DNA of 64,000 nucleotides from Candidatus Nitrososphaera evergladensis SR1 (lineage in GTDB: Archaea > Thermoproteota > Nitrososphaeria > Nitrososphaerales > Nitrososphaeraceae), in contig NZ_CP007174.1 of NCBI RefSeq assembly GCF_000730285.1, positions 1,116,001-1,180,000 of the forward strand, given 5' to 3'. How positions within the stretch are numbered: position 1 is the first letter of the stretch; each line of letters starts with the position of its first letter. The notes beneath the pieces were generated by a model. It searched no databases. It saw nothing but the letters and a program-made list of their open reading frames with translations, and was not told the origin of the DNA. Below are positions 18,020 to 36,249 of the stretch, in pieces. The position numbers and the translations under genes were made by a program.

Positions 18020-18025
18020 CGGGAC

Positions 18026-19654: not shown

Positions 19655-19792
19655 GCTTTTCTGCTTTTTTAAAAAAAGCGCCCTGCGTGTGGCGCCAAGC
19701 TCTTGTTTTTGTAGGTTCTAAATTCTTTCAAATCTATTCGTCATCAGGAGATAGGGAAAAAGAGTGATTGATCGTCGGATCCAAACGAGTTC

Positions 19793-19805
19793 AGCGACAA
19801 AGAGT
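19793..19805 (+). repeat. Left target-site duplication of the casposon
   Basis: AGCGACAAAGAGT, followed by AAAA, recurs at 31142-31154 directly outside the right terminal repeat. The shared direct repeat is 17 bp if the following A tract is counted, which is ambiguous because the terminal repeat also begins with A. Published casposons make duplications of about 14-15 bp. Confidence 0.85.
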
Positions 19806-19848
19806 AAAAACACTCTCCCCCCTTTTTACGAGGGAATTTGTGCCGCTT
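19806..19848 (+). repeat. Left terminal inverted repeat of the casposon
   Basis: 43 bp starting AAAAACACTCTCCCCCC and ending GAATTTGTGCCGCTT. It is the exact reverse complement of 31099-31141. The outer A/C-rich part and the inner TTTGTGCCGCTT part are the likely Cas1 recognition sequence. Confidence 0.93.
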
Positions 19849-19865
19849 GACTAGGTATTGTCTTA

Positions 19866-19919
19866 CGTTATGATTTGTTGGAAAGTGCTTAAAGCTCAGT
19901 CATAACGCACGTCATAACG
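19866..19919 (+). promoter_or_regulatory. cas1 promoter with three TCATAACG operator-like copies
   Basis: TGCTTAAAG at about 19887-19895 is a TATA box. TCATAACG occurs inverted at 19866-19873 and twice in direct orientation at 19900-19907 and 19912-19919, the direct pair lying between the TATA box and the cas1 start, where a bound protein would block transcription. One TCATAACG is also kept at 30481-30488 in a cas1 5' remnant, which suggests the site belongs to the ancestral cas1 leader. Confidence 0.5.
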
Positions 19920-19925
19920 AAAGTA

Positions 19926-20996
19926 TTGACGCTCAAGGGCAGAAAGAACCATTACAACATCAAGATGCTCAAAGGCTATGGAGCATCTATTTCACTCAAG
20001 GACAAGAAGGTATGCTTGAAGGGAGGTAGGGATGCATTTACTGGCAAGCAAGACATTGAAGAGTGGTTTGTCAGCCAAATCCCTTACGAGAAAATTGTCT
20101 TGGCTGGCAGAGGTTACGTTTCTACCGATGCTATTCAGCTTTTGACACAGCACAACGTGAATGTCATCTTGCTTGATTCTTATGGAAACTTGATTACGAA
20201 CATGACACGAGTAATGGTCAGTGAAACGGCTACACGGTACAGGATGGGGCAGTACGACACTTTTCGAAGTCCTGGCAAGGTACTGTACCTGCAAAAGAAG
20301 AATCTTACCGCAAAACTCCAGAGTCAGATTGATTTTCTGCAGTCACTTCAGAAGTCAGAACTGACAGACTGCATCAATGGACTGAAGAAGTACAAATCAA
20401 GAATCGAAAAGCAAAGGGACAAGCGCGACCTGCTGAGAATTGAAGCCGGCGCCGGACAACTTTACTTCCGCTATTACACTGGCTTGTTTGATTCTAAGTT
20501 TGGTTTTGATTCAAGAAATGGAGGAGGAATAAAGACAGGCAACAGATACGCGTCAGACGTTATTAATGCCCTTTTGAACTATGGCTATTCTGTTCTTGCT
20601 GCAGAGATTGCCAAGTTCGTGCATGGCTGCGGGCTTGACCCTTACTATGGCTTTTTTCACAAAGCAGACACTTCATTTCAAGCTCTTATCTATGACCTGA
20701 TTGAGCCTTTTAGATGGCTGGTCGAGTATGCAGTTTACAAATTAGCTGTAGAAGCGCCACAGCATGGGAGAGCCATTAGAAAAGACGAGTACGCTTGGAC
20801 AAGAGAGAGTAGAATAATTCTTGACGATGCTCTCATCAGACGATTCTTGGAACTCTTGGAGCGCAAGTTACAGAGCGAGAGGCCATACAGATTCAGACAT
20901 GGATTAAAGAGAAGAGATGGCTTATCCCTGTGCCAGGAAATTACCATTACAAAAATCAACGTCCAACAACTTGCGGATTATTGCGTGGCTAACTAG
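19926..20996 (+). CDS. cas1: Cas1 integrase (casposase)
   Basis: A 356-residue Cas1-family endonuclease/integrase, which inserts the casposon by ligating 3' ends into the target. The N-terminal beta domain begins (M)TLKGRKNHYNIKMLKGYGAS. The catalytic helical domain has the three expected metal ligands: E173 in IEAGAGQLYF, H245 in YGFFHKADTSF, and D257/E260 in ALIYDLIEPFR. The C-terminus ends without the extra HTH domain seen in some casposases. The start is a TTG; no in-frame ATG lies upstream. Being next to a terminal repeat and having no CRISPR array nearby argue for a casposase rather than a CRISPR adaptation protein. Confidence 0.93.
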   Translation: MTLKGRKNHYNIKMLKGYGASISLKDKKVCLKGGRDAFTGKQDIEEWFVSQIPYEKIVLAGRGYVSTDAIQLLTQHNVNVILLDSYGNLITNMTRVMVSETATRYRMGQYDTFRSPGKVLYLQKKNLTAKLQSQIDFLQSLQKSELTDCINGLKKYKSRIEKQRDKRDLLRIEAGAGQLYFRYYTGLFDSKFGFDSRNGGGIKTGNRYASDVINALLNYGYSVLAAEIAKFVHGCGLDPYYGFFHKADTSFQALIYDLIEPFRWLVEYAVYKLAVEAPQHGRAIRKDEYAWTRESRIILDDALIRRFLELLERKLQSERPYRFRHGLKRRDGLSLCQEITITKINVQQLADYCVAN

Positions 20997-22171: not shown

Positions 22172-22229
22172 ATCCATCCAAAGGAAGTATCTTATATGAA
22201 GAATGCAACTCTGTTGAAGCGAATTACAG

Positions 22230-22457
22230 CTAGATCGGTAATTTTGTTTCGGTCTTATTGTTCCAGAGGATTTCTTCCACTTTAAGCATGTTTCTAATAT
22301 CACTGGCGAATCCTGGTCCAAAGCTTGCGTTATGATTACTGGCAGGCATGATGACAAACGGAACGTCTGTTTTCTTGACAATGCCACTCCAGTACCTCAT
22401 CTCATTCAGCCTCTTACGATCAGTCTTGCTGAGGTGCTTTTCATCAATGACAGGTCT
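22230..22457 (-). pseudogene. Remnant of a protein-coding gene
   Basis: A 75-codon open stretch on the minus strand reads as plausible protein (VIDEKHLSKTDRKRLNEMRY, then DVPFVIMPASNHNASFGPGF, then RNMLKVEEILWNNKTETKLP), but there is no upstream start and a stop precedes it. The only start inside, an ATG before RYWSGIV, would give about 54 residues. It is most likely the 3' end of a lost gene between two cargo genes. The family is not recognised. Confidence 0.4.
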
Positions 22458-22663
22458 TTAGCTGTGTAAAAAAGTTCATTGTGATATAATTTCACATGTC
22501 TTATTTTACTTTCTAAATATTTCCTGAATTGACAGGGTTAGAGCATTGAAAGTAAGTTCTGATAGAACCTCGCTCTTTTCCTCTCTAAGTCGTGTCTTCT
22601 GTCATACACATAAGCTTCGTTAAAAGGTAATCCTTATTTTAAGGCATACTAGTCGAAACATAA

Positions 22664-25600
22664 TTGGCTGAAGAAGTAGCGCGTATCGCTAGCCCTCTAT
22701 CTACCTCTAATTGGGGAGGAACTTTCGAACATCTAGTTGCCAGTGTGTATTTAGTTGAACTGCTGCTTGGTGATATGCCCTACGGACTGAAAGAGGGAAC
22801 AATAGAAAAAGTGCAATTTCAGACAGCTTGGACGGGTGATTCTCTTGATGACCTTGCCATCTATACTAGGGAACCATCAATGAAGTTAGTTCTCCAGATA
22901 AAGAACAATCTTGAATTTTCACCTGGCGATAAGACATTCATCAAGGTTCTCAAGTCTTGTTGGAGTACTTTTAAGAAAGATACTTTCGATCCAAAAAAAG
23001 AATGGTATGGTATCGGGCTTGGAATCTACCAAAAAAATATAGATTCTCATTTGCAGCAGCTCCTCAACTGGGCGCGAGATTCTGGTGATAGCCAAGAATT
23101 CTTTCAGAAGGTAAAGGCTTTTGATTCACAAGGAAAGAAAAGATTTGTTAAGATCTTTGAAGAGGGTCTAAAGAAAGCGTCTGGTCTCGATGTCATTGAC
23201 GATAGCGAATTATTTGACTTCTTGAAGAATCTAGTGGTTCTATACTATGATGTTAAACCAGAAGGAAAAGATCGAACATGGTCGATCAATTACCTAAGAC
23301 AAATAGTGAAAGATGGCACTCCCCAAGAATCGATCTTACTCTTCAATCATCTTGTTCAAACTGCAGCCAAATATTCGGCGAGTGCGGGTACGCTTACTCT
23401 AGAAAGCCTTAGACAAGAAATTCCATACGGGATAATACAAACAGACCATAAGGCAGTTTTTGATACTGTAAGTTATCGGAAGCGATTACTGGAATATCTT
23501 CGCTTTGTGGAGGGATTCAGGGATTACACCCATGAACTAGATAAGAAACCATTGAAAGATTACTATTTGCAGAATAGGGCGGTTGTGCAAGATGTCCGTA
23601 AATGGGAGGAAGAGAGTTCAGTTGAAGATGGTGGTAATAATTGGCGCATCGATAAGTTTCTTGAAAGTGGTGACTGGTATTTGCTTGTCGGTGCGGAGTT
23701 CGGCATTGGAAAAACTTCAATGATGCGTATGGCGGCATCTAAGCTAGCGACCGCATTCCTCAAGAAAAAGGAAGGCTTCATACCAGTATTAGCTTTTTTC
23801 AAAGATAAATTAAGGAATGTTTACTATAAAGAGAATCTTGACTATGTTATTTCTACTATCGTCGCACCAAGACAATTCTCTAACAAGACCCACATCCTGC
23901 TTATTCTTGACGGTTTAGATGAATATGGCGAAGATATTGAGGACTTGTTGCTCCGCTTAGATTCTATGCACCAGTCCTATCCACTGATGAAAGTCATAAT
24001 TACCACTAGGATGAACGCTGGCTACCCGCGGTTATTAGAGGTAGATAAATTTGTAAGATTATTACCGTTTTCAAAAGAAGAAGTAGACTCATTTTTTGAT
24101 AGGTATGGTGTTTCCCTGTCATATGGAGACCTGAGTGATTTTGGATTAAGAGATGAGGAGAAAGCGAAGCCTCTCTTCTGTTGGATGATGGCTGTAATCT
24201 CTTCCCGCACATCTACAGAAATAAGAATGAATAAAACATTGACTGCCAACACCCGTCGTGCCCTAATCTATCAGGAATTCATCCATTCTCTTCTACGGGG
24301 AAAATATCGCGAGGAAGCCAAGAGATCAATAGATGGTTTCCACGCGTTGTATGTACAGGAGAAGAAAATACTTCGCAAGATAGCAGCGTTGAAACAGATG
24401 ACAAAGGGAGAGTTAACGGAGGTCGGTTTGAAACAAGATCTCGCAAAGTTTGGTTTGGTTAATTGGTCACAGGATATTGAACCAATTCTTACATCATATT
24501 TCACCTTAAGAACAGATGGCTTGTATAAGATGGTCGATTTCATACATGAAAGCTTCAAGGAATACCTGGTGGCAGAATACTATATCGAAAGCATTCTTGA
24601 AGGACATTACGAACGATTGTATGTTGACATGCCAAGCAAAGAGACTCTTAGTTATCTCGAAGGATTAGTTGAATTATTGAGGAACGACTCCGTTCGAGAC
24701 CAGATGGGAGAGATTGCAGATATGTTCCTAAAATCCCTTAGTCACGGAACTCCCCCTAACATAATTACATATTCTTCGTTTTGCAACGTATTGGACTCTT
24801 TGAATATTATGGCTTCCAAATGCTTTGAAGATAGGGATTTAGTAATTGGGGAAAAAGGTGCGATACAAAGCGAGTTGTGGTCTGTCACAGATGGAGGTTC
24901 ATATGTTGGCAAGTCTATGAAGGATTACGAATCACTGTGGCTTCATAGATGGATAGCGGCCTATATCTTAAACAGACTTTGCAATTTGCCAGAGAAAGAA
25001 GAGCTTGAGCGTTTGGTGAAGTTTACATCTCATCAGATGCCAAACAACATCAAAGAATTCAAGGATGCAAAACTATCAAGGATTAATTTTGAAAATGCCA
25101 ATTTTTCTAAAAGCAATTTTGAGAACGCTATATTCTACGGTGCACATTTAACAGGTTGTAACTTTAGCCATTCCAACCTTAGAAGCACTCGCTTCTTCGG
25201 AGCGACAATGGTTGGGACGTCATTGGACCATAGTGATTGCGAGAAAGGTAATATGACTGATGCTAATCTAACGGGGGCAAATCTTAGCTACGCAAATCTT
25301 AGAGGAGCCAAACTATCAAACGCTATTCTTGATTCAGTTAACTTTGGATCGCTTTTAGTGATTGAGGATGGAAAGGTAAAGGCTGCAGAGAATAATGGAG
25401 TGGTCAACTTACAAGATGCAACTCTGAATGGCGTAAAGATAAGAGCTACGGTCATAAGCAATATTGAGTTAAAAGGCACCAATCTCTCACAATGTGACCT
25501 TAGGAGTTCGGATATAGTTCGCGTTAGGTTAACGGAGGTCAATCTTTTCAAAAGTAATCTTCAAAATTGTAAGATAGTTTGGTGTACTTTTTCAGGTCCG

Positions 25601-26014
25601 AATACAGACTTATCCTACTCAAATCTTTCAACAAGCATTATAATCGAGAGTAATCTGTCAGGGTGTAATCTCAAGAATGCAGTTCTTCTAGGCGCACATC
25701 TTGATAAGGTTGATCTTACTGATGCGGACCTTAGAGGTGCAGACCTTAGAGGCACCTACTTAGGAAGGCTAAAAATCGGCAGTGTAACGGTTGATGAAAA
25801 TACCAAAACAGAGGGAGTAATTTTGCATTCTGCAGATTATTTTAAGAGATTTGACAAAGATATTAGGGAGCTAATTGAAAAGCAAAATAAACAGATTCGA
25901 TTTGATAAGCGAGATAGGCTAAAATCGATAAATATCATACCTAGAAGGACTAGCTCTTTCACAGCAGAAGAGATGTTCTCAGAAGTCAATGAATTTAAAT
26001 ACATTGATTTTTAG
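22664..26014 (+). CDS. Nuclease-NACHT-pentapeptide STAND protein (predicted immune NTPase)
   Basis: A 1116-residue cargo protein. Residues 1-170 look like a PD-(D/E)XK nuclease of the Mrr/Cap4 type: E22 in GGTFEHLVA, D62/D63 in LDDLAIYT and the Q-x-K motif 78-80 in LVLQIKNN. Residues about 335-640 are a NACHT/STAND NTPase with Walker A GAEFGIGKTSMM (343-354), Walker B HILLILDGLDEYGED (410-424) and IITTRMNAGYPRL. From about 790 to 1060 run pentapeptide repeats (NFENANFSKSNFENAIFYGA, ANLTGANLSYANLRGAKLS). Known relatives detect phage components and trigger the fused effector; here the repeats could be the sensor. The TTG start lies about 26 bp after TTATTTTAAGG. Confidence 0.85.
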   Translation: MAEEVARIASPLSTSNWGGTFEHLVASVYLVELLLGDMPYGLKEGTIEKVQFQTAWTGDSLDDLAIYTREPSMKLVLQIKNNLEFSPGDKTFIKVLKSCWSTFKKDTFDPKKEWYGIGLGIYQKNIDSHLQQLLNWARDSGDSQEFFQKVKAFDSQGKKRFVKIFEEGLKKASGLDVIDDSELFDFLKNLVVLYYDVKPEGKDRTWSINYLRQIVKDGTPQESILLFNHLVQTAAKYSASAGTLTLESLRQEIPYGIIQTDHKAVFDTVSYRKRLLEYLRFVEGFRDYTHELDKKPLKDYYLQNRAVVQDVRKWEEESSVEDGGNNWRIDKFLESGDWYLLVGAEFGIGKTSMMRMAASKLATAFLKKKEGFIPVLAFFKDKLRNVYYKENLDYVISTIVAPRQFSNKTHILLILDGLDEYGEDIEDLLLRLDSMHQSYPLMKVIITTRMNAGYPRLLEVDKFVRLLPFSKEEVDSFFDRYGVSLSYGDLSDFGLRDEEKAKPLFCWMMAVISSRTSTEIRMNKTLTANTRRALIYQEFIHSLLRGKYREEAKRSIDGFHALYVQEKKILRKIAALKQMTKGELTEVGLKQDLAKFGLVNWSQDIEPILTSYFTLRTDGLYKMVDFIHESFKEYLVAEYYIESILEGHYERLYVDMPSKETLSYLEGLVELLRNDSVRDQMGEIADMFLKSLSHGTPPNIITYSSFCNVLDSLNIMASKCFEDRDLVIGEKGAIQSELWSVTDGGSYVGKSMKDYESLWLHRWIAAYILNRLCNLPEKEELERLVKFTSHQMPNNIKEFKDAKLSRINFENANFSKSNFENAIFYGAHLTGCNFSHSNLRSTRFFGATMVGTSLDHSDCEKGNMTDANLTGANLSYANLRGAKLSNAILDSVNFGSLLVIEDGKVKAAENNGVVNLQDATLNGVKIRATVISNIELKGTNLSQCDLRSSDIVRVRLTEVNLFKSNLQNCKIVWCTFSGPNTDLSYSNLSTSIIIESNLSGCNLKNAVLLGAHLDKVDLTDADLRGADLRGTYLGRLKIGSVTVDENTKTEGVILHSADYFKRFDKDIRELIEKQNKQIRFDKRDRLKSINIIPRRTSSFTAEEMFSEVNEFKYIDF

Positions 26015-26101
26015 AAAGCAGAATGAAACCGCCTACTTTATTTCATCGTCCAGCTCTCAGGGGGCGTCTAAACTATTTACGCAATACAAAGACCATGTTT
26101 A

Positions 26102-27943
26102 TCAAATCTGCTCCCTCGTAAAGACACTTAGAGAAAGGGGCGAAGATTCATTGAATTGGTCCTCGTTCAGAGAGTTTATTTTTCCAAGCCAGAACCTTTT
26201 GCGGTCTCCATCAAAATCGACCTTTCTGATTTCTTCTTTAAAGACACCTATCTGCGCTATCTTGCCCTGTCTTATTGCAGAACGTAGGTTAGTGACCCGC
26301 TCGACCTTGAGCTTCATGTACACACCTTCTCCAGACTGGTAAATGTCATAGTTATCCAGAGTCTTTCCTTTCTCTGAGCCTATGCCACGCTCTTTCCAGT
26401 TTCCATTCCATCTGTTTATCCCGTTTTGAATGCAAAAGACATCTTGAGCATAGTCTTTTAGTGCAAATTTACCTAGCGCCTTGGAACCTTTGCCTAGGTC
26501 TCTGGTGACGGATATCCCGTCAGTCGCTATGAATGCCACGTCCTTTTCGATTCCATTGTTTCTTATGTATCGGTAAATCTGAGCTCGTGTGCTGCCTGTA
26601 ATGTGCGAAGCAATAACAGGATTGAAGAAGGTTCCCATTACTCTCTTTTTCTCTAATTGCATAGTTTCTGCCGTCTTGCCATAAATCGAGTTTAGCATTT
26701 CCTTGAATGGGATATGAAGAGGATCATTTCTTTCCTTTAGCTCTGTCTTTTTGGCATAGTATTCGCGGACGAATTCATCGTACGGGTGATAGTTAGGATC
26801 GTTTGGAACAAACTGCCACGAGTCTAATATCTCATACCACTCTTTTCTTTCACAAGCTTTCAATTCCTCTATGCTCACATAAGTGACAAACTTGCCCGTT
26901 GGATAAACGAGATTTGCATTGGCCTTAAACGGAAAAGGGCCGAGATACTTCCAATCAGGAACATTCGCAACCACCTTGAAAAAGCCCATCGTCGCGCCAC
27001 TTTCAATGGCATTTCCTTGCATCCATTGGCCGTCTGTCAAGTCATGCAGCTTGGCAATCTTGTCAGGATACGCCGAGTTGATGTCATAATTTCTTGCTTC
27101 GCCGATAACGCCTCTTTTTGTCTGTTCAAACCTCCCGCCTACAAATGCTCTGTAAGCCAATACTTGAGTATGTAATGGCACCTCGGCAAACCTAGGAAAT
27201 GCTATTCCGCGGAATATCATTGCCCTAGATGCAAGATATGCCGATGACAGGAGTCTTTTTGGATAGAAGCCAGCGGCTTGGTAGTAGAGCTCAAGCCACT
27301 TTTCTCCAAGTGCTTTTGTCATAATGCAATCATTGATGCAGTACTCACGCAGAAGGCGGATGTGGCGCCGGCGAAATCTTGCAGAAAATTCGCCTCTTGC
27401 AGACTTTAGTCCTTTAAAGTGCTCAGGCATCGGTCCTATGTTTCTCTCGTAGGCTTGCTGCAGGCTAGTTTTGAAAAACTGAGCAATGTCATAAAACGAT
27501 ACTGATTTGTGTCCTTTGGTTATGGTCAAGCATTTTTTTGGGATGTATTTTATGCGAAAGTCTCCGTGCTGAAAAGCAAGCTCTCTTGTGTGGAGGTATC
27601 TTTCAAGCTCTTTGCCAAGCAGCTTTAAAATGACAATGGCATCAAACTTTAGGTTATAGAATACGTTGACAGCATTCTGGTACTTTTTGTGAAAGAGAAA
27701 ATCTAGTACAGTGTCTGCGGATACGTCTTTGTCTAGGTATCTGCCGTCCGAGTCTGCAATTAAAAATATGTCTCCCTGATACGTCTCTGTGTCTAATCCA
27801 TAGACCGGCCTTATTCCCGCATCCGTTGCCTTTCTGTGCTGTGCCACTGTCGTATCGATCTTGGACAAATCTTTGTAATCTGTCATTGGTATAGACAACG
27901 ATGAGAGTAATGATGGTGGTGTCATGGCGAAGGATTTTGCCAA
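26102..27943 (-). CDS. polB: Casposon family B DNA polymerase
   Basis: A 613-residue PolB of the compact type found in casposons and related to protein-primed polymerases. The 3'-5' exonuclease domain starts with VYGLDTETYQGD and continues to FYNLKFDAIVIL and REYCINDCIMTKAL. The polymerase motifs are A NYDINSAYPDKI, B FKEMLNSIYGKTAE and C FIATDGISV. Motif C keeps the second Asp of the usual DTD, the catalytic one, but has Ala for the first. It presumably copies the element. It is the last gene of a four-gene minus-strand operon, and its start overlaps the upstream coiled-coil gene by 22 bp. Confidence 0.92.
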   Translation of the reverse strand: MAKSFAMTPPSLLSSLSIPMTDYKDLSKIDTTVAQHRKATDAGIRPVYGLDTETYQGDIFLIADSDGRYLDKDVSADTVLDFLFHKKYQNAVNVFYNLKFDAIVILKLLGKELERYLHTRELAFQHGDFRIKYIPKKCLTITKGHKSVSFYDIAQFFKTSLQQAYERNIGPMPEHFKGLKSARGEFSARFRRRHIRLLREYCINDCIMTKALGEKWLELYYQAAGFYPKRLLSSAYLASRAMIFRGIAFPRFAEVPLHTQVLAYRAFVGGRFEQTKRGVIGEARNYDINSAYPDKIAKLHDLTDGQWMQGNAIESGATMGFFKVVANVPDWKYLGPFPFKANANLVYPTGKFVTYVSIEELKACERKEWYEILDSWQFVPNDPNYHPYDEFVREYYAKKTELKERNDPLHIPFKEMLNSIYGKTAETMQLEKKRVMGTFFNPVIASHITGSTRAQIYRYIRNNGIEKDVAFIATDGISVTRDLGKGSKALGKFALKDYAQDVFCIQNGINRWNGNWKERGIGSEKGKTLDNYDIYQSGEGVYMKLKVERVTNLRSAIRQGKIAQIGVFKEEIRKVDFDGDRKRFWLGKINSLNEDQFNESSPLSLSVFTREQI

Positions 27944-28314
27944 ATGACATCCGGAATCTCCCCTTTTCTTCCACGCCTGCGCTCAAAGAATAACTTGAAT
28001 ACTTCGCCATATGGGAGCTCATGAGGAGTACCGCGAATATTGCTATGGATAAGGCGAACGTAGCGATGAACTCCCTTCATCCATTGTGAACGCTCCGCAT
28101 TTGCCTCTTGTCTTTTTTGCAGACGACTTTCTTTACTCTCTTGCTCTTTGCGTTTTTGACTCCGCTGCGATACTGCGCTTATTCTTGTCTCAACGCGTGA
28201 CAATTCCTCTTTCAGTTCATTCCTCAATTTCCTCACAGTTGATGTATTTCGAAATATTTCTAAGGCATCAAGTTGTGCTTGTATCTTTTTCCTTTGCTCC
28301 GCCAGTGTTGTCAT
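27922..28314 (-). CDS. Small coiled-coil protein upstream of polB
   Basis: A 130-residue, highly charged protein. Residues 1-75 form a long heptad helix (EQRKKIQAQLDALEIFRNTS, LKEELSRVETRISAVSQRSQ) and residues 80-125 a basic tail (VHRYVRLIHSNIRGTPHELP, RRRGRKGEIPDVIWQNPSP). It overlaps polB by 22 bp, which suggests coupled synthesis and a role with the polymerase, such as DNA binding or replication initiation; this is inference from position. Confidence 0.7.
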   Translation of the reverse strand: MTTLAEQRKKIQAQLDALEIFRNTSTVRKLRNELKEELSRVETRISAVSQRSQKRKEQESKESRLQKRQEANAERSQWMKGVHRYVRLIHSNIRGTPHELPYGEVFKLFFERRRGRKGEIPDVIWQNPSP

Positions 28315-28369
28315 TTTTTTCTTTTCTACCTCTGAAAAAGAAAGTATTGGAAAGATTGGGAGCGGCCGG

Positions 28370-28765
28370 TCAATAGACCAGCCTGAATCTTCGTATCATC
28401 CTGTCGTTTCTGCTTTTGTCTAACCATGTTAGTATCTTGACAGTCTTGCCAATCTTTATCCGGCCACTGTCCAATCCCCTCGACCATTGATTGATCAGGC
28501 TAACATTGGCAGAGCCGTTTGACCTTAATGGCAGGATGGCGTCAATCCATATGCCATTGTCTTTGTATGAGACATCAGTGCACTGGCTATACTCCGTGGC
28601 GTAGATCTGCCTGGTTTGAGGCTTGACTTCGAGTACATTGGGACTGTCTTTGTCCATGCTGTCGAATCTCCCTAGGCGGATGAATTTCCTTTTCCGTGTT
28701 TCTGGAGTAGCCGAAAGGCTTTTGTCGGGGGTGGTGGAAGAAATATTGGATACCGTTTCTTCCAT
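28370..28765 (-). CDS. Unknown casposon protein
   Basis: A 131-residue protein with a disordered Ser/Thr-rich start (EETVSNISSTTPDKSLS) and a beta-rich core (KFIRLGRFDSMDKDSPNVLE, NGIWIDAILPLRSNGSANVS). The C-terminal part KIGKTVKILTWLDKSRNDRM is basic, and the core could be an OB-like nucleic-acid-binding fold, but no motif proves it. It lies in the polB operon, four bases after the next upstream gene. Confidence 0.6.
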   Translation of the reverse strand: MEETVSNISSTTPDKSLSATPETRKRKFIRLGRFDSMDKDSPNVLEVKPQTRQIYATEYSQCTDVSYKDNGIWIDAILPLRSNGSANVSLINQWSRGLDSGRIKIGKTVKILTWLDKSRNDRMIRRFRLVY

Positions 28766-28769
28766 TTTT

Positions 28770-29021
28770 TTATTCGCCCTCCTGTACTGGCGTCAGCTTG
28801 AGGAACTGCTCTGTGCCCATCTGCACCAGTTTGACGTTTACGTATCTCGCGTTTTTTCCGCAGTTTGCAAGAGCACCTTTTGGCAATGCAACCAACTTTG
28901 AAAAATTCTGGTTGCAGATTTTTCTATTTCCAAAGTCGATGGTTATTTGTTCGCCACCGACTTTTTCTTTTGTACTTCCTTTCACGTTATTTCTTACGTA
29001 ATTCACAACATACGTCTCCAA
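28770..29021 (-). CDS. Unknown small casposon protein, first gene of the polB operon
   Basis: An 83-residue protein with alternating strands (QITIDFGNRKICNQNFSKLV, YVNVKLVQMGTEQFLKLTPV). The pattern again resembles a small beta-barrel, and it may pair with the next gene product. Its promoter (TATA-like CTATAAACA on this strand, near 29030) overlaps the palindrome region shared with the divergent winged-helix gene. Confidence 0.6.
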   Translation of the reverse strand: METYVVNYVRNNVKGSTKEKVGGEQITIDFGNRKICNQNFSKLVALPKGALANCGKNARYVNVKLVQMGTEQFLKLTPVQEGE

Positions 29022-29040
29022 ACCCTAATGTTTATAGCGG

Positions 29041-29075
29041 TACGCAAAGTACCCTAGGGTACACAAAGTAGCGTA
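29041..29075. promoter_or_regulatory. Palindromic operator between the divergent casposon operons
   Basis: GTACCCTAGGGTAC (29049-29062) is a perfect 14-bp palindrome, flanked by TACGCAAA on the left and ACAAAGTAGCGTA on the right, which are themselves near-inverted. It lies between the polB operon (start 29021) and the winged-helix gene (start 29080), where one bound dimer could control both. The winged-helix protein is the natural candidate as its own regulator. Confidence 0.6.
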
Positions 29076-29079
29076 CTGA

Positions 29080-29682
29080 GTGATGGAACTAAATGATTAT
29101 TATTGTAGAAGGATGTTGGCGAGCCTTGAAAAGAGGGGAAAGCTTGGATCTAATGAATTCAAAAGAGTGATGACTGCCGGCCCCAATCCAATAATGTCTG
29201 AACGGCCTTTTAGAGAGAGGCTGCGCCTCCTCGTGGAAGCAGGTCTCGTGACTCGTTTACCTGATAAGGAAGACAGCGGGAAAGTGTGGTATACTCTGGA
29301 ACCGGGCATTCTGGACAATGAGCGTGCATTATTCAACGAAATTCAGGAACGACTTGAGGAGATGGATAGACAATATGCCCAAATGGAAAAGAATATCTCT
29401 GCAATAAGCACAGTCGATAAGGCATATCAACTGTCCTTGGCAATGAGGGAGCTAGCGAGCATCGAGTACCGTCTATGGATTCTCAAAGTAATATTTCGCA
29501 GAAATAAGAGACCTAAGGTTCTTTCCAAGAAGATAGAAGAACTGAAAGGAAAATTGTTTCATCTGACTCACATTGGAAATGCGGATAAGTGGACAGTCCA
29601 AGTTATCTTGGGAGTCCTAGAAAGGCTGGAGGCTGAGCTGCATCGAGAGTTAGTTGCATCTCAAGAAGAGATGACATCATAA
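29080..29682 (+). CDS. Winged-helix DNA-binding protein of the casposon
   Basis: A 200-residue protein with an N-terminal winged helix (CRRMLASLEKRGKLGSNEFK, FRERLRLLVEAGLVTRLPDK, VWYTLEPG) and a long helical coiled-coil C-terminal half (about 85-195). Probably the regulator of the divergent polB operon and of itself through the palindrome in front. The start is GTG 29080 or ATG 29083. Casposons of several families carry HTH genes, but their roles are unknown. Confidence 0.75.
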   Translation: MMELNDYYCRRMLASLEKRGKLGSNEFKRVMTAGPNPIMSERPFRERLRLLVEAGLVTRLPDKEDSGKVWYTLEPGILDNERALFNEIQERLEEMDRQYAQMEKNISAISTVDKAYQLSLAMRELASIEYRLWILKVIFRRNKRPKVLSKKIEELKGKLFHLTHIGNADKWTVQVILGVLERLEAELHRELVASQEEMTS

Positions 29683-29708
29683 TCCGTGTTTATTACCGTG
29701 TAGACAGT

Positions 29709-29734
29709 TGTTTACAGCTGTAAACAGGCGTAAA
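29709..29734 (+). promoter_or_regulatory. 18-bp palindromic operator of the ribbon-helix-helix gene
   Basis: TGTTTACAGCTGTAAACA (29709-29726) is a perfect 18-bp palindrome. A further half-site GTAAAC follows at 29730-29735 (GGCGTAAACATG), spaced like tandem ribbon-helix-helix operators. It lies directly in front of the GTG start at 29738, so autorepression is likely. Confidence 0.6.
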
Positions 29735-29737
29735 CAT

Positions 29738-29953
29738 GTGACAAAAACAATAACTGCTAGAATACCCGACGAAGTCCACTCGGAGGTACTAAATAGATGC
29801 AATCGAGCGGGCGTAAACATCAACTACTTCCTTAATCGCGCACTTGAGCTCGTAATTACAGGAAGTTCGCAATTTGAATTTGGCGATGAAGAGGTTGAAG
29901 ACGATGAAGGTCATCAACAAAGAACATTACAAAAATCCCTCGTAATTAATTGA
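29738..29953 (+). CDS. Ribbon-helix-helix (CopG/Arc-like) DNA-binding protein
   Basis: A 71-residue protein: an N-terminal beta strand (TKTITARIPDEVHSEVLNRC), then two helices (NINYFLNRALELVITG) and an acidic tail (FGDEEVEDDEGHQQ). This is the classic RHH layout. The GTG at 29738 starts it exactly at the strand; the longer frame from 29708 runs through the palindromic operator and is unlikely. It is probably a plasmid-type copy or operon repressor. Confidence 0.75.
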   Translation: MTKTITARIPDEVHSEVLNRCNRAGVNINYFLNRALELVITGSSQFEFGDEEVEDDEGHQQRTLQKSLVIN

Positions 29954-30094
29954 GGAACTAGGAGCGTTTTCTATCCTTAGGAACCGTAACCGCTGCACTT
30001 GAAAATGTATGAATAGTAAATTGCGAGTCAGTGGACTATGCCCTAAGATACGAGACAGCGATAGAATACAACGTGAAAAGGTGTATGAAACAGA

Positions 30095-30370
30095 TTGCTG
30101 ACACGGAAGCTTAGACAAAACAGTATCAAAAGTATCGAAGGCATGATAGATAAGATGGAAGAACTAAATCACAAGCATGTAGAAGACGAAATGGCAAAAG
30201 GAAGGAACCCCGATGAAAGTATTGTTATGCAGGTTAACGAAATGTATCGTCTTCTCTTAAGAGGGTGGCTGCGATCAGAGAAAGAACTCTTGGAAGTTGA
30301 GGAAAGAATCCGAGAACTGGAAAAGAAGTCTAGAAAGCAAAATACAACAAGAAAGAAGCGCAAGAAATAA
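30095..30370 (+). CDS. Small basic coiled-coil protein, unknown
   Basis: Up to 91 residues, mostly one long charged helix (KSIEGMIDKMEELNHKHVED, LLEVEERIRELEKKSRKQNT) ending in a Lys/Arg-rich tail. Starts are TTG 30095 or ATG 30143, and I cannot choose between them. No family recognised. It follows the RHH gene in the same direction inside the casposon. Confidence 0.45.
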   Translation: MLTRKLRQNSIKSIEGMIDKMEELNHKHVEDEMAKGRNPDESIVMQVNEMYRLLLRGWLRSEKELLEVEERIRELEKKSRKQNTTRKKRKK

Positions 30371-30480
30371 TCAGCGAGTCCGGTCTGTTTACTCGCCTTG
30401 TTACTGCAATGATTCTTCTGGCCTTTTGTCCATGTTCAGACAACGATTGATGTTATGGTCTAAAGATACTGTTCAACAAA

Positions 30481-30550
30481 TCATAACGTACGACAATACT
30501 TAGTCACGCGGCACAAATCCACGCTCAAAAAGGCGGAAGGAAACATCTTA
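30481..30550 (+). pseudogene. Remnant A of a cas1 5' region
   Basis: It begins TCATAACGTACGACAATAC, close to the operator part of the intact cas1 leader (TCATAACGCACGTCATAAC). It continues with GCGGCACAAA, the inner motif of the terminal repeat in its right-end orientation, then ACGCTCAAAAAGGCGGAAGG, which aligns with the cas1 start (ACGCTCAAGGGCAGAAAG) with a 2-base insertion. The reading frame is broken. It stands just before the DUF3237-like gene. Confidence 0.5.
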
Positions 30551-30566
30551 TCGACGGAATGACAGG

Positions 30567-31010
30567 TTAGGCTTTGTATCCTTTTACGCGAACTTCTCCA
30601 GTTGCCAAGTTTACCGTCCCGACTCCCCATACAACTATAGAATTTACCCAAGCGTGCGCCGAGTAGTTAGACTTCAACGTCACATTCTCCCGCAAATGGA
30701 CGATGCCCTTAGCGTCGATAGTTCCTATTCCGTCGGCGAACATTGATACCTTCCCCCCATCAGCCATATCGAATTGTCCATGAATGTGAAGCTCTGATAG
30801 ACCATCAGCACGAATGTTGAGATAATCCACTCCGTGCCATGAGCCTTTGAACCTGGGGCCATCGACAGTACCTTCAAGCGATACATCGAACCGCGCACCC
30901 TCGGGAGGCGGAGCGGCCTTTCCTGTGGTTATTGCCTGCAAGTTTGCACCATACTCAACAACGCCTGTGATGTGCAATGCAACCTCATAGACGAGTTCCG
31001 ATGATTCCAT
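30567..31010 (-). CDS. DUF3237-like protein
   Basis: A beta-rich protein of 147 residues from ATG 31010 (a TTG at 31052 would add 14). The sequence fits the DUF3237 beta-barrel family: LVYEVALHITGVVEYGANLQ, GPRFKGSWHGVDYLNIRADG, MFADGIGTIDAKGIVHL. Members are uncharacterised, with possible small-molecule binding. It is the last gene before the right terminal repeat and lies between that repeat and cas1 remnant A, so it may have been captured in an earlier insertion round. Confidence 0.7.
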   Translation of the reverse strand: MESSELVYEVALHITGVVEYGANLQAITTGKAAPPPEGARFDVSLEGTVDGPRFKGSWHGVDYLNIRADGLSELHIHGQFDMADGGKVSMFADGIGTIDAKGIVHLRENVTLKSNYSAHAWVNSIVVWGVGTVNLATGEVRVKGYKA

Positions 31011-31098
31011 TTGCTTAGATATCGGCTTCTTGTCTATAACTTTGTGCCCCAAGCCCGTCGTTACTTCTGGTATGCGTACTGTTGTACATCATTACAAA

Positions 31099-31141
31099 AA
31101 GCGGCACAAATTCCCTCGTAAAAAGGGGGGAGAGTGTTTTT
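31099..31141 (-). repeat. Right terminal inverted repeat of the casposon
   Basis: 43 bp, the exact reverse complement of 19806-19848, reading AAGCGGCACAAATTCCCTCG at its inner end and GGAGAGTGTTTTT at its outer end. Perfect identity over this length indicates that the element is young or kept functional. Confidence 0.93.
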
Positions 31142-31154
31142 AGCGACAAAGAGT
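31142..31154 (+). repeat. Right target-site duplication of the casposon
   Basis: AGCGACAAAGAGT, followed by AAAA, the same as at 19793. A related AGCGGAAAAAGAGTA stands at about 31249-31263 and may be a decayed copy of the same target. Confidence 0.85.
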
Positions 31155-31197
31155 AAAAGGGAACGCACCCTTCCACGCTCACTTTTGTGCCGCTTTT
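31155..31197 (+). repeat. Decayed second left terminal repeat, abutting the casposon
   Basis: Directly after the right target duplication the sequence runs AAAAGGGAACGCACCC, then TTCCACGCTCACTTTTGTGC, then CGCTTTT. It lines up with the left terminal repeat: AAAA at the start, ACG in the middle, and TTTGTGCCGCTT at the same distance. This looks like the left end of an older casposon into whose border the intact element inserted. Confidence 0.55.
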
Positions 31198-31329
31198 GCA
31201 GCCTATTTGACGCGAAAAAGCGCTTCTTTTTTGTAGCTCGCAACGCTAGCTAGCGGAAAAAGAGTAGGAAGGAAGTGGATAAAGGGAATCTCCTCTTTGA
31301 GCACAAAAATCTGTACTGTCTTGTAACCT

Positions 31330-31410
31330 GTAAAGCTCGGTAGCTGGTAAGGATGGCCAGCTCAAGAATGACCTTGAAAGGAAAGAAGAACCACAACAAT
31401 ACCTGAACAT
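31330..31410 (+). pseudogene. Remnant B of a cas1 5' end
   Basis: ATG at 31368 reads MTLKGKKNHNNT and then stops (31404-31406), against TLKGRKNHYNIK in the intact Cas1. Upstream, TAAAGCTCGGT matches TAAAGCTCAGT of the intact cas1 leader. The coding similarity ends after about a dozen residues. It stands 40 bp before the secreted-protein gene at 31446. Confidence 0.6.
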
Positions 31411-31445
31411 CATGATAGAATCGTCTTCCTTTAATTTGATTAATC

Positions 31446-32333
31446 ATGATGACCTTGATAACCCAAGTGCAAAAATTGTTTGCTCGCATAATGCGGCAGC
31501 CCATAATGACCCTATTCCTTTTCGTGGCGCTATTGTTGTTATTGTTACTGAAGCCAGCGTCAATCTTTGCTCAAGGAAAAATAGATGTTACATCATCTCC
31601 AGCATATTTTGGAAACTTGCCGTCAGCTCTCGCTGCAAGCGATAATAACAATAGTGCATCTGCCGATAACACTTGGTATATCGGCAAAGGAACCAAGCCA
31701 GATACTTATGTCAAGTATGCAATCAACAATCTTGGAACTAACAACAACCAGACATTCATTATGACTATATACTTCAAAGATTACAATGTAACTGGAAAGT
31801 ATTGGATAGCACCTGTGTATATTTTTGATGCTCCTAACAAGGAAAATAATATTGATGCAGGTAGATTTCCCCATCTCGTAAACGGGACATTTCTATTAAA
31901 TGATGAGACAATGAGAGTAATACAAGGCTCAGACATTCCTCAGCAATTAGCTCAATACAAAGACGCTTATGGATATTCATTGGACTGGCTGAGTGATTTT
32001 GCCACGAAATCTTCTCCAAGGTCTTTATCGCAGCCTTCTTGGGGCAAAGCAGCAAGTTTGGGCGGCATCGAGATTTGGCTAAAAAGTACGGAGACTCTGA
32101 CGGTGCCGGCAGGTACATTCAATACGACCGTGATAACTTGGCATAAGGGTGCTGCTGCTTCCGACAGCAAGATATGGGTAAACAAGGATTTCCCATATCC
32201 AATAAAAGCAAGAGTCTACTCTGAAGTGATTCATCCGCCTGCGCCTATTTGGTTTGAATTTGAGCTTTTGGAGTATGGCAAAGGCAGCCTGTTGAACCGC
32301 TGGCAATCGTCGGATTATTTAACCCTTAACTAG
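31446..32333 (+). CDS. Secreted protein of unknown function
   Basis: A 295-residue protein with a long signal segment (IMTLFLFVALLLLLLLKPAS, cleavage likely near IFAQG) and a beta-rich exported domain with many N-x-S/T sites (TNNNQTF, YNVTGKY, LVNGTFLL, FNTTVITW). The C-terminal half (IEIWLKSTETLTVPAGTFNT, VNKDFPYPIKARVYSE) recalls domains in which a side-chain-rich strand precedes a conserved 'PAGTF..TVITW' turn, seen in archaeal surface proteins. The function is unknown. It follows cas1 remnant B in the same direction. Confidence 0.75.
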   Translation: MMTLITQVQKLFARIMRQPIMTLFLFVALLLLLLLKPASIFAQGKIDVTSSPAYFGNLPSALAASDNNNSASADNTWYIGKGTKPDTYVKYAINNLGTNNNQTFIMTIYFKDYNVTGKYWIAPVYIFDAPNKENNIDAGRFPHLVNGTFLLNDETMRVIQGSDIPQQLAQYKDAYGYSLDWLSDFATKSSPRSLSQPSWGKAASLGGIEIWLKSTETLTVPAGTFNTTVITWHKGAAASDSKIWVNKDFPYPIKARVYSEVIHPPAPIWFEFELLEYGKGSLLNRWQSSDYLTLN

Positions 32334-32420
32334 CGCAGTCTCTAGTACATAATCACTACCGTGGGAGAAGACCCGTTTATACGTGGAGACCCAAAATAGT
32401 TTCTCATCTTTGGCCTTGTC

Positions 32421-32635
32421 ATGACAGTGCTTGCCATAGTGTTCGTCATTTTCTACGTCTTGCCAAATTTGCATATTCCATTAATTATTCTCATACTTAA
32501 CGGGTACATCACAAATTGGAACAATATTCTGGCTTACTGGTAGACTTCTCGTGCATACTCTTGCCGCTAATGCAGGCAGAGATGATTTCAGGTCAGACAA
32601 TGACGATAAATGAAGCTGTCATGAAATTCGCTTAG
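32421..32635 (+). pseudogene. Broken gene for a small membrane protein
   Basis: From ATG 32421 a strongly hydrophobic frame (MTVLAIVFVIFYVLPNLHIP, LIILILNGYITNWNNILAYW) stops at 32541. In the next frame the sequence continues as plausible protein (VDFSCILLPLMQAEMISGQT, MTINEAVMKFA) to a stop at 32633. Before the ATG, reading GEDPFIRGDPK also runs into a stop at 32397. One frameshift and one stop therefore suggest a decayed gene with two membrane helices. Confidence 0.45.
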
Positions 32636-32639
32636 GGTG

Positions 32640-32735
32640 GACCGAAAAGCTAAAGCTTGGGAATTATTAGCACCGCTATGACGGTAGCTGGCCAAAAGAA
32701 CCATTACAACGTCAAGGCGCTACTCCTGGTATTAT
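32640..32735 (+). pseudogene. Remnant C of a cas1 5' end
   Basis: AAAGAACCATTACAAC (32695-32710) is a 16-base exact match to cas1 (19943-19958), followed by GTCAAG against ATCAAG. It reads QKNHYNVKALL, against RKNHYNIKMLK. Upstream, CGGTAGCTGG is shared with remnant B. No start codon or further Cas1 sequence follows. The secreted-protein gene at 32775 ends 40 bp later on the other strand. Confidence 0.65.
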
Positions 32736-32774
32736 CGCTGCACTGCACATGATCTAACTCTGAGATTCTCTCTA

Positions 32775-33350
32775 TTATGTACAGACACCACAACATGCGC
32801 AATCGTAGGCTAATATCTTGCCGCTAAATGCATCGACATAATATAGATAAAAATACCTAGGTGCAGGGGCCTCATACTTTTCCTTGTCCGTTTTATCTGT
32901 GACAACCCATATGTACTTGTCGCTTGTGTCATTTTTTGATATAAAAAATGCATGGTCGCCATAGTTGCCTATGAAGGGCCGTGTATCAGTCCAATTAACC
33001 GCGAGTGTTGCAGGATTGGCTATGTAGATTACGTACTGCGAAACTGTATCGTTAGCCCAAGGAATTGTACCATTATACTTCCAGTACTGAAATTGAATTG
33101 TACGGATGATACTATCCTTGCCGATGCCCGGCAAATGGGAATTAGCTATGATTTGTGCAGCTGTTTGGTTTGAGATTGTCGTCATCATCGTGCGTAAAGA
33201 CTGGACAGACGACTGCTGTTTTGTACTGATGATGGCTTTACCGTTAGTAGTATATGTGGTGTTGCCAAAGGTAGGCACAGCAAGCGCTACAGTAGATGGT
33301 GTCAGTAAAAATACAATTCCGACAACAACGACAATGCTCTTCAGCATCAT
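32775..33350 (-). CDS. Secreted protein of unknown function
   Basis: A 191-residue protein with a typical signal peptide (MMLKSIVVVVGIVFLLTPST, cleavage near ALAVP). The exported part has several N-x-S/T sites and a C-terminal PepSY-like ending (FYLYYVDAFSGKILAYDCAC), finishing CACCGVCT with four Cys, perhaps a metal or disulfide site. No family is recognised with confidence. It is convergent with remnant C. Confidence 0.7.
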   Translation of the reverse strand: MMLKSIVVVVGIVFLLTPSTVALAVPTFGNTTYTTNGKAIISTKQQSSVQSLRTMMTTISNQTAAQIIANSHLPGIGKDSIIRTIQFQYWKYNGTIPWANDTVSQYVIYIANPATLAVNWTDTRPFIGNYGDHAFFISKNDTSDKYIWVVTDKTDKEKYEAPAPRYFYLYYVDAFSGKILAYDCACCGVCT

Positions 33351-33399
33351 CGCCTAACAGTACGAGCAAGTGGCGTTAAAGTATTGAGCAGAAATTCTA

Positions 33400-33510
33400 G
33401 GTAAGCATGGCAAGTAATCCCTCACCATAAGGGAAGTCAGGATACTCTTTTGGCAAAGTCGACCTGAAGGGGAAGAAGAACAATTACAATGTAAAACTTC
33501 TGAAATGTAT
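33400..33510 (+). pseudogene. Remnant D of a cas1 5' end
   Basis: From 33458 the frame reads VDLKGKKNNYNVKLLKCIAA, matching TLKGRKNHYNIKMLKGYGA of Cas1 over 16 residues; the similarity ends where the convergent membrane-protein gene begins (its stop at 33517). No start codon is present. The flank TTAAAGTATTGA (33378-33389) recalls GAAAGTATTGA at the intact cas1 start. Confidence 0.6.
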
Positions 33511-33516
33511 TGCTGC

Positions 33517-33831
33517 CTATTCCTTGGCATTGTCATTTTCTTTGGGAATCTTTTTTAGCGTCAAAAATGACCTTTCCTCCATTCCAAGCACAAGCAAAAA
33601 AGAACCCAAACTTCCCAGTGCTACTACGGCAACAAAATAGCCCGAAGCGTTCTGCAACGCCATGTCGCAAGTTCCGGGCGGTCCTTCGTTAGGCGCAAAA
33701 TCCCTATGAGAATAAACTTGGCTAGGGGAACAGCCATGGGCGACCATCTGCCATACCGGAAATGGGATGCCTATCACTCCTACTATGATGGCTATTCCTG
33801 CGGCTACCTTTTGCGGATGCATTGCAGACAA
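33517..33831 (-). CDS. Small two-helix membrane protein
   Basis: A 104-residue protein with membrane helices at about 8-30 (VAAGIAIIVGVIGIPFPVWQ) and 62-83 (ASGYFVAVVALGSLGSFLLV). The loop between holds two Cys (HGCSPSQVY, GTCDMALQN) and N-x-S. A basic tail (LKKIPKENDNAKE) is likely cytosolic. No family recognised. It lies next to cas1 remnant D. Confidence 0.6.
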   Translation of the reverse strand: MSAMHPQKVAAGIAIIVGVIGIPFPVWQMVAHGCSPSQVYSHRDFAPNEGPPGTCDMALQNASGYFVAVVALGSLGSFLLVLGMEERSFLTLKKIPKENDNAKE

Positions 33832-35362: not shown

Positions 35363-35471
35363 CCTGAAATATAAGTGAGGATCATCGTCCAATGACGTAA
35401 AAACTGAAAATAATTTGGCCGTTTATCGCCATAACAAAGCTCTTATTTTATGCCTGCAAAGGTACTGCGCT

Positions 35472-35933
35472 GTGCCCAAGCGCAACTTTAGCACTCTTGA
35501 CGAGTTCAAGGCCAACCTGCACAAGGAAGGGGCTACGCTCGTCGAGTTCTCTGGAGGCAAAGTGCCCTGCATACTGGTAAGTCCCAAGAAATACGAAGAG
35601 ATGCTGGGCAAGGTCTATGGCAGGCGCGTGTCTGCTGATACTCTATTGGACATCTTTTACGACGGGCGCGACGTGTTTGTAGATGTCAACATCAAATTTA
35701 GAGATACGGACTTTGAAGGAAATTTCCTCCTGTATGCAAACGACATGCTAGAGTGGTTTGAGGCGCTTGCGGAAAGCGGAATGATGGCGATGGGCCCAAG
35801 CGAGACTACGTACACAAACTCGCAGAATATCTTCATGATCCAGCTTCCAAAAAAGGACGCGGCAGAAAAGGCGCTTGAAATCATAAAGACAAACGCCAAG
35901 AACCGCGTGGTAAGGGGAATGCAGGATGGCTAG
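35472..35933 (+). CDS. Unknown protein, first of a two-gene operon
   Basis: A 153-residue soluble protein (NFSTLDEFKANLHKEGATLV, EFSGGKVPCILVSPKKYEEM) with alternating alpha/beta pattern and no known motif. I place the start at GTG 35472, 26 bp after TTATTTTATG, instead of the TTG at 35415 whose first residues are unlike the rest. The stop overlaps the next gene by eight bases. Confidence 0.65.
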   Translation: MPKRNFSTLDEFKANLHKEGATLVEFSGGKVPCILVSPKKYEEMLGKVYGRRVSADTLLDIFYDGRDVFVDVNIKFRDTDFEGNFLLYANDMLEWFEALAESGMMAMGPSETTYTNSQNIFMIQLPKKDAAEKALEIIKTNAKNRVVRGMQDG

Positions 35934-36108
35934 AGAAGAAGAAAAAAAGAAGAAAAAGAAAGAAGTCGAAGAATTCGCAGAGGAAGACGACGACCACTTT
36001 AAACTGTACGGCAAGCGCGCATGGGAAGTGGAGTACGGCGAAAAGTGCCCGACGTGCGGCAAGCGCATCGACGAGTTTGGGTTCTGCGCGTGCGGAAGCG
36101 CCGGCTAG
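35926..36108 (+). CDS. Small zinc-ribbon-like protein
   Basis: A 60-residue protein with a Lys/Glu-rich start (REEEKKKKKKEVEEFAEEDD) and a C-terminal C-x2-C ... C-x-C motif (EKCPTCGKRIDEFGFCACG). It overlaps and probably works with the preceding unknown protein. The function is not known. Confidence 0.65.
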   Translation: MAREEEKKKKKKEVEEFAEEDDDHFKLYGKRAWEVEYGEKCPTCGKRIDEFGFCACGSAG

Positions 36109-36174
36109 TTATGGAACTCTTTTGCCATACGCGTAAACGACGTAAACTAGCGTGCTTTTTTGGAGTAAAAATGG

Positions 36175-36249
36175 TGCGACGGCCGGGATTTGAACCCGGG
36201 TTACCAGATTGGCAATCTGATGTCCTAGACCAAACTGGACGACCGTCGC
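36175..36249 (-). tRNA. tRNA-Gly (anticodon GCC)
   Basis: The minus strand reads GCGACGG ... CCGTCGC as acceptor stem, an anticodon arm CAGAT-TGCCA-ATCTG with anticodon GCC, and a T arm with GGTTCAAATCC. Discriminator A is followed by an encoded CCA (36172-36174). No intron. It lies between the small zinc-ribbon gene and the heme-gene cluster. Confidence 0.95.

What the first reader, a model, noticed from the sequence alone, without database searches (positions are those of the whole stretch)
30481..33510. Four cas1 5'-end remnants, each beside a different gene
Seen: remnant A (30481-30550, with TCATAACG and ACGCTCAA), B (31368, MTLKGKKNHNNT then stop), C (32695-32710, 16-base exact match to cas1), D (33458, VDLKGKKNNYNVKLLK). 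All lie on the plus strand, each covers only the first 12-20 codons, and each is next to a distinct gene (30567, 31446, 32775, 33517). Repeated loss down to the same short 5' piece is hard to explain by random decay. It suggests serial casposon insertion and deletion at one site, or that the cas1 5' end is a recombination or insertion point that leaves gene-sized cassettes.
Basis: partly seen in the sequence, partly recalled or inferred. Interest (0 to 1): 0.8.

Follow-up and report, generated by a model that had tools for sequence, protein, structure and literature searches.

The report
Casposon stumps stacked at one site
The short pieces of the cas1 gene are the ends of old casposons (transposons that use the CRISPR enzyme Cas1 to insert) that entered one attachment site one after another and then lost most of their bodies, leaving stumps beside passenger genes; the same pattern recurs in this genome and in several genera of ammonia-oxidising archaea.

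Summary
B, C and D are real cas1 5' pieces. A model built from cas1 5' ends elsewhere finds C (E=1.4e-10), D (4.8e-7) and B (4.8e-5) in the window. A is not a plus-strand cas1 piece. It is the long inverted repeat at the right end of the intact casposon, and it carries a faint inverted cas1 5' copy. The casposon, probably the published NitEve-C1, sits at a site resembling the 3' end of the ef-2 gene. It has 44-bp identical terminal repeats and a 17-bp direct repeat on both sides. B-D lie in a 4.2-kb tail of older elements behind it. At the same locus G015, a congener, has one small cassette, and three other congeners have the two flanking genes about 38 bp apart. About ten more cas1 5' pieces lie elsewhere in this genome, several with casposon ends upstream. 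In Nitrosopumilaceae, Nitrosarchaeum and Nitrosotalea, elements at ef-2 or similar sites are cut to an end, at most one passenger gene and 15-73 cas1 codons. Best reading: serial insertion at one site, then loss of each body. Some units also look like mobile gene cassettes. I found no published description.

The parts
19760..19809 (+). leader plus att site resembling the ef-2 3' end; left target duplication AGCGACAAAGAGTAAAA at 19793-19809
   Evidence: sequence; same leader in G015 with a different element behind it; ef-2 3' ends carry the same motif in relatives
19805..19886 (+). left terminal inverted repeat of the intact casposon; outer 44 bp identical to 31142-31099, inner part matches A
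   Evidence: blastn, alignment
19926..20996 (+). full-length cas1 (casposase)
   Evidence: PF01867, 4.7e-46
26102..27943 (-). family B DNA polymerase of the casposon
   Evidence: PF03175, 1.7e-18
30363..30552 (-). 'Remnant A': inner right long inverted repeat of the casposon, with a degenerate inverted cas1 5' copy at 30426-30404
30549..30566 (+). degenerate att relic (TTATCGACGGAATGACAG) just outside A
   Evidence: sequence; by eye
30567..31052 (-). DUF3237 gene between inner and outer right ends
   Evidence: PF11578, 1.9e-7
31099..31142 (-). outer right terminal inverted repeat, 44/44 identical to the left tip
   Evidence: blastn
31142..31158 (+). right copy of the target duplication AGCGACAAAGAGTAAAA
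31153..31201 (+). tip of the next element (type I terminal repeat)
   Evidence: cmsearch R1 34.3 bits, E=1.8e-9 (this copy was among the model's seeds)
31252..31268 (+). att-like relic AGCGGAAAAAGAGTAGG
   Evidence: sequence; by eye
31278..31407 (+). Stump B: type II casposon end with the first ~12 codons of cas1
   Evidence: HMM without window sequences E=1.7e-8; R2 E=4.8e-5
31446..32333 (+). passenger gene, 295 aa; its domain is common in Nitrososphaeraceae
32645..32722 (+). Stump C: sub-terminal region plus ~15 codons of cas1
   Evidence: R2 E=1.4e-10
32775..33350 (-). passenger gene, 191 aa, no Pfam family
33439..33506 (+). Stump D: ~16 codons of cas1 and a little upstream sequence
   Evidence: R2 E=4.8e-7; type II HMM E=7e-4
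33517..33831 (-). passenger gene, 104 aa
33965..35362 (+). passenger gene, 465 aa, no Pfam family
35382..36234 (+). distal flank where homology with G015 resumes: end of the array

Best explanation
The region is a tandem array of casposons at one att site. Each new casposon or casposon-like element inserts at the same att, next to the leader, leaving a target duplication and pushing older elements outward. Older elements then lose most of their body from early in cas1 onward. What remains of each is the att-side end (terminal repeat, sub-terminal DNA and the first ~10-70 codons of cas1, the first or second gene from that end), often beside one passenger gene. B, C and D are three such stumps. 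A is the long inverted repeat of the still intact casposon at its other end. Shown: the repeats, target duplications, independent significance of B-D, the locus comparison with congeners, and recurrence in other genera. Inferred: insertion by Cas1, the order of events, and why deletions stop where they do (probably an anchored left side next to an essential target gene, or a retained passenger gene).
For: (1) Tips 19805-19848 and 31142-31099 are identical, with a 17-bp direct repeat outside both. (2) B, C and D match models of casposon ends that exclude them, including upstream non-coding DNA for B and C. (3) The same att in G015 carries one ~600-bp cassette. In G014, G012 and G007 the two flanking genes are ~38 bp apart. 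(4) At ef-2 the G015 order is ef-2, end, ABM gene. In this genome 2.4 kb of other genes lies between ef-2 and the ABM cassette, leaving the old end relic stranded inside. (5) Nitrosarchaeum: ef-2, casposon, target duplication, end with 31 cas1 codons. Nitrosotalea devanaterra: ef-2, casposon, target duplication, end 99% identical to the first, passenger gene, 73 cas1 codons. (6) In Nitrosopumilaceae (G118, G124, G105) and G084 stumps of 15-56 codons lie beside ef-2 or other att-like sites; in G084 codons 1-25 are joined to 316-354. (7) Every stump with a clear end runs 73 codons or less of about 356.
Against: Clear right ends of the B-D units were not found, so their bodies are inferred. Target copies between B, C and D are too decayed to be sure of. 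Some att copies at the ef-2 array are inverted, which simple tandem insertion does not predict. The apparent end of homology near codon 15 in the most decayed copies is partly an effect of local alignment to the best-conserved block. Casposase activity was not tested.
Confidence: 0.75

Rival explanations
1. The units are mobile non-autonomous casposons (gene cassettes): they keep the terminal regions the casposase and polymerase need, including the cas1 start where it falls inside the end, carry one or two unrelated genes, and are moved in trans by a casposon elsewhere in the cell. Not exclusive of the best explanation.
For: A 2.35-kb element at genome 465173-467523 has both terminal repeats, att-like sequence on both sides, a nitronate monooxygenase and a hydrolase, and no cas1 inside. 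A leader-repeat-gene cassette (76% nt over 546 bp) lies at non-orthologous att sites in this genome (2156.3k) and G015 (65.7k), with dS 0.40 and dN 0.18. In G014 the inverted repeat covers -89 to +83 of cas1 at both ends (94%). About 12 single ends are scattered over the genome.
Against: Most units, B-D included, show only one recognisable end. The Nitrosopumilaceae stumps have no target duplication after the cas1 piece, which suggests deletion rather than a mobile right end. No movement was observed.
Confidence: 0.4
2. Ordinary decay of several old casposons that happened to share a neighbourhood; the short 5' pieces are what a sensitive search sees because the KNHYNVKLLKGYG block is the best conserved part of cas1.
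For: The best-conserved block sets the apparent end of homology in decayed copies.
Against: An unbiased whole-Cas1 profile also finds mostly 5' fragments in the genus, about 8 within codons 1-63. Well-preserved stumps, most at 70-94% protein identity, stop at 15-73 codons. att and terminal repeats adjoin the pieces.
Confidence: 0.15
3. Chance: B, C and D are coincidental matches.
For: B alone is weak in coding sequence (about 10 of 12 residues).
Against: E-values of 1.4e-10, 4.8e-7 and 4.8e-5 from an independent model; no shuffled window reached the score of B, C or D.
Confidence: 0.01

Closest known systems
Family 1 casposons of Thaumarchaeota, in particular NitEve-C1 (Krupovic et al. 2019, PMC6563490)
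   Different: In the main text I read, whole elements are described; I saw no mention of the chain of stumps behind it, the scattered ends, the inner right repeat A, or units without cas1.
Tandem and decaying casposons (Methanococcoides burtonii, M. psychrophilus R15, PMC4046053; Np. adriaticus, PMC6563490)
   Same: Repeated insertion at one site and a decaying second copy next to an intact one.
   Different: Those are whole or partly decayed copies. Here the older copies are reduced to an end with the cas1 start, at many loci and in several genera.
MITEs and other internal-deletion derivatives of transposons
   Same: Ends kept, transposase gene lost or cut; the 2.35-kb element at 465k fits.
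   Different: Most units here show one clear end and carry a full passenger gene.
Integron gene-cassette arrays
   Same: Works like: single genes collected in a row at one attachment site, newest nearest the fixed end.
   Different: No integron integrase among the array proteins scanned; attC-type sites were not sought; Cas1-type ends instead.

Membership tests
Family 1 casposon (element 19805-31142) | cas1 gene not part of a CRISPR locus | tested here: met
   PF01867 4.7e-46 at 19926-20996, first gene from the left tip; the neighbouring proteins scanned include no other cas gene
Family 1 casposon (element 19805-31142) | protein-primed type family B polymerase | tested here: met
   PF03175 (organellar and viral polB) at 26102-27943; the priming mechanism itself not tested
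Family 1 casposon (element 19805-31142) | terminal inverted repeats and target duplication | tested here: met
   44/44 bp repeats; AGCGACAAAGAGTAAAA at both sides
Family 1 casposon (element 19805-31142) | Cas1 integrates the element | not testable with these tools
   Shown in vitro for another family 1 casposase (PMC6614799), not for this one
Relics of casposons (B, C, D) | casposon terminal sequence joined to a cas1 start | tested here: met
   (clear upstream DNA for B and C, short for D)
Relics of casposons (B, C, D) | opposite end and flanking target duplication | tested here: inconclusive
   No inverted end found in 31.2-35.4 kb; only degenerate att-like words
Non-autonomous casposon (465k element) | two inverted ends, att on both sides, no cas1 between | tested here: met
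   R1 hits at 465173 and 467523 with att-like sequence outside each; genes listed. Both ends were among the R1 seeds, found first by blastn and nhmmer
Non-autonomous casposon (465k element) | moves in trans | not testable with these tools
   needs an experiment
Integron cassette array | integron tyrosine recombinase next to the array | tested here: not met
   No integrase domain among the window array proteins scanned

The most novel reading that the evidence does not exclude
Ammonia-oxidising archaea build gene-cassette arrays with a casposon integrase: single genes flanked by casposon ends are collected one behind another at ef-2-type attachment sites, newest first, as a Cas1-based counterpart of integrons and of CRISPR arrays, with the cas1 start kept as part of the end sequence.
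Probability: 0.25. Interest if true: 0.85.

Novelty: new variant of a known kind. Interest (0 to 1): 0.62.

Why it matters
Casposons are held to be the source of the CRISPR adaptation machinery, yet they have been counted as whole, rare elements. The stumps show that insertion at ef-2-type sites has been frequent, ordered and repeated, and that it brings single foreign genes into ammonia-oxidising archaea. The end models give a way to read this history in any thaumarchaeal genome. If the small units still move, CRISPR-like polarised growth would have a living transposon counterpart that could be tested.

Tried and rejected
A fifth piece near 34015, seen by eye, got no support from model R2 and was dropped. 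The idea that passenger gene 31446-32333 proves casposon origin was weakened: its domain is in 57 of 61 family genomes. Relatives of this Cas1 in viral contigs: none; in phage records only distant matches at 23-25%. A cas1-like hit at 2336421 covers codons 233-323 and has no casposon end; left aside. Mapping the 2631k and 465k arrays onto G015 and G014 gave a shared flank on one side only. Rota_VP6 on the upstream gene is below its cut-off and taken as noise.
Full report
WHAT THE WINDOW IS. The window is 1,116,001-1,180,000 of a single 2.954-Mb contig. Size, casposon and neighbours fit Ca. Nitrososphaera evergladensis SR1 and its published casposon NitEve-C1, 'inserted into an intergenic region' (PMC6563490); no accession match was made, so this name is an inference. 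The casposon runs from about 19805 to 31142. It has cas1 at 19926-20996 (PF01867), a family B polymerase at 26102-27943 (PF03175), a HEPN protein and a NACHT-pentapeptide protein. Its tips are identical over 44 bp, and AGCGACAAAGAGTAAAA stands directly repeated on both sides.

THE OBSERVATION. Four pieces were claimed. I built model R2 from eleven cas1 5' ends: three intact or nearly intact genes and eight fragments, none of them from the claimed pieces. In the window, with filters off, it finds the full gene (E=1.5e-20), C (1.4e-10), D (4.8e-7), B (4.8e-5) and one inverted piece at 30426-30404 (0.009); the next hit has E=1.2. An HMM that also leaves out the window's own cas1 gives 33.5 (C), 21.4 (D), 12.0 (B) and 9.4 bits (inverted), against a best of 8.6 in 30 dinucleotide-shuffled windows. 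B, C and D are therefore real. A is something else: 30468-30539 is the inverted copy of 19815-19886 (83%, E=5e-16), and the alignment stays collinear from 19815-19993 to 30540-30363 (score 117 against at most 54 in 1456 random segments). The inverted cas1 piece lies within it. A is thus the inner, long right repeat of the casposon, and its repeat runs into a degenerate cas1 5' copy. The inner part taken alone is only weakly significant (39 of 2000 shuffles reach its score); the independent R2 hit at the matching distance from the tip is the better evidence.

WHY AN END CARRIES A CAS1 START. In the Nitrososphaera elements cas1 starts about 90-120 bp from the tip. In the Nitrososphaera sp. L.E.AR.1 element the inverted repeat covers -89 to +83 of cas1 at both ends at 94% identity. 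A cas1 5' piece is therefore a marker of a casposon end. An HMM made only from ends outside the window (two from G014, and 465k and 179k of this genome) matches 31290-31398 around B at E=1.7e-8, most of it upstream of the start codon.

ONE SITE, MANY ARRIVALS. The site looks like the last codons of ef-2 (GAGTTCATCGACAAAGAGTAA). Exact matches to CGACAANGAGTAAAA occur four times in this genome: both sides of the casposon, and next to the 465k and 179k pieces. ef-2 itself has one mismatch. In G015 the flanks of the window locus match window 17190-19848 (90%) and 35382-36234 (85%), but between them lies one cassette with a 158-aa protein gene. In G014, G012 and G007 the two flanking genes are about 38 bp apart. 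At ef-2, G015 has the ABM-domain gene directly behind ef-2. This genome has 2.4 kb of other genes between ef-2 and the same cassette (82% over 514 bp), whose old end now lies inside the array. This fits growth at the leader side; it is inferred from two genomes.

BEYOND THE WINDOW. The 50-nt tip model R1 finds 24 matches in this genome at E up to 1 (about 16 at E<1e-3), some of which were its seeds, and matches in 13 of 18 genus members. R2 finds further cas1 5' pieces, for example at 264.7k, 777.1k and 1301.0k, and these turned out to have type II ends upstream although R2 holds only about 35 bp of upstream sequence. A profile of whole Cas1 finds in the genus about eight fragments within codons 1-63, against a few others (two 3' ends in G008, one of codons 45-75, a decayed copy, two of codons 233-323). 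In 121 genomes of the order, the R2 hits checked are either full-length genes (G020, G159, G088, G153, G141, G163, G151, G136) or short: 29, 34, 31 and 26 codons, 73 in N. devanaterra, and in G084 codons 1-25 joined to 316-354. Reference choice shifts some limits: one of the G124 pieces extends to codon 56 with another reference, and two more pieces of 15 and 26 codons were found. In Nitrosarchaeum sp. CoA_2_bin.4 and N. devanaterra an intact casposon at ef-2 is followed by a target duplication and a reduced second element with 31 and 73 cas1 codons. In Nitrosopumilaceae a passenger gene stands between tip and cas1 piece, and the neighbouring host gene often follows directly. No target duplication was found after the piece in the five loci checked, so these look like right-hand deletions.

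UNITS THAT MAY MOVE. At 465k a 2.35-kb element has both tips, att-like sequence outside each, a nitronate monooxygenase and a hydrolase, and no cas1. A leader-tip-gene unit is 76% identical over 546 bp between non-orthologous sites in this genome (2156.3k) and G015 (65.7k), with dS 0.40 and dN 0.18. Part of that similarity is the shared leader. The leaders at 2156k and 2631k are 93% identical over 74 bp while the genes behind them differ. These facts suggest that some units travel without cas1. Most units, B-D included, show only one clear end.

MECHANISM. Shown: repeated casposon ends at one site; conserved flanks; presence and absence between congeners; stumps cut within the first fifth of cas1. 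Inferred: Cas1 inserts each newcomer next to the leader (known in vitro for a family 1 casposase at an ef-2 target, PMC6614799); older copies lose their right-hand parts; the left side is held because it adjoins the target gene or a retained passenger gene. Why stumps keep 15-73 codons, and not none, is open: either part of the functional end or the minimum left by deletions that stop before the end.

NOVELTY. Tandem casposons and a decaying second copy are known (PMC4046053, PMC6563490). Searches of the held library for casposons with MITE, non-autonomous, cassette, truncated cas1 or tandem terms gave no description of stump arrays or cassette units; subscription papers and supplements were not searched. 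I class it as a new variant of a known kind.

Noticed in passing
window 21209-22171 and 22664-26014: The casposon carries a HEPN-domain protein and a 1116-aa NACHT protein with pentapeptide repeats, which look like defence cargo.
   Followed up: no
window 30552-31142: Inner and outer right ends enclose a DUF3237 gene, as if the casposon had taken an adjacent gene along by using a farther end.
   Followed up: partly
L034 6174-8524 (genome 465173-467523): 2.35-kb element with two casposon-like tips, a nitronate monooxygenase and an alpha/beta hydrolase, no cas1.
   Followed up: partly
L076 1288-4280 (genome 694.3-697.3k): Row of small genes behind ef-2 (SnoaL-like, ABM-like and others), with tips preceded by recognisable or degenerate inverted att copies; the inverted orientation is unexplained.
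   Followed up: partly
L151 ~6100-6170 and L153 ~5705-5775: The same 74-bp leader (93%) stands at two distant places with different genes behind it and a similar cas1 5' relic at the far side.
   Followed up: partly
L282 5556-5737 (G084): cas1 with an internal deletion joining codons 1-25 to 316-354 next to ef-2, followed by repeated small ORFs.
   Followed up: no
L280 ~4945 (G124): A casposon stump behind a gene that looks like a proteasome subunit, a target other than ef-2.
   Followed up: no
window 60144-60234: ARAGORN reports a tRNA of undetermined type with a four-base anticodon.
   Followed up: no
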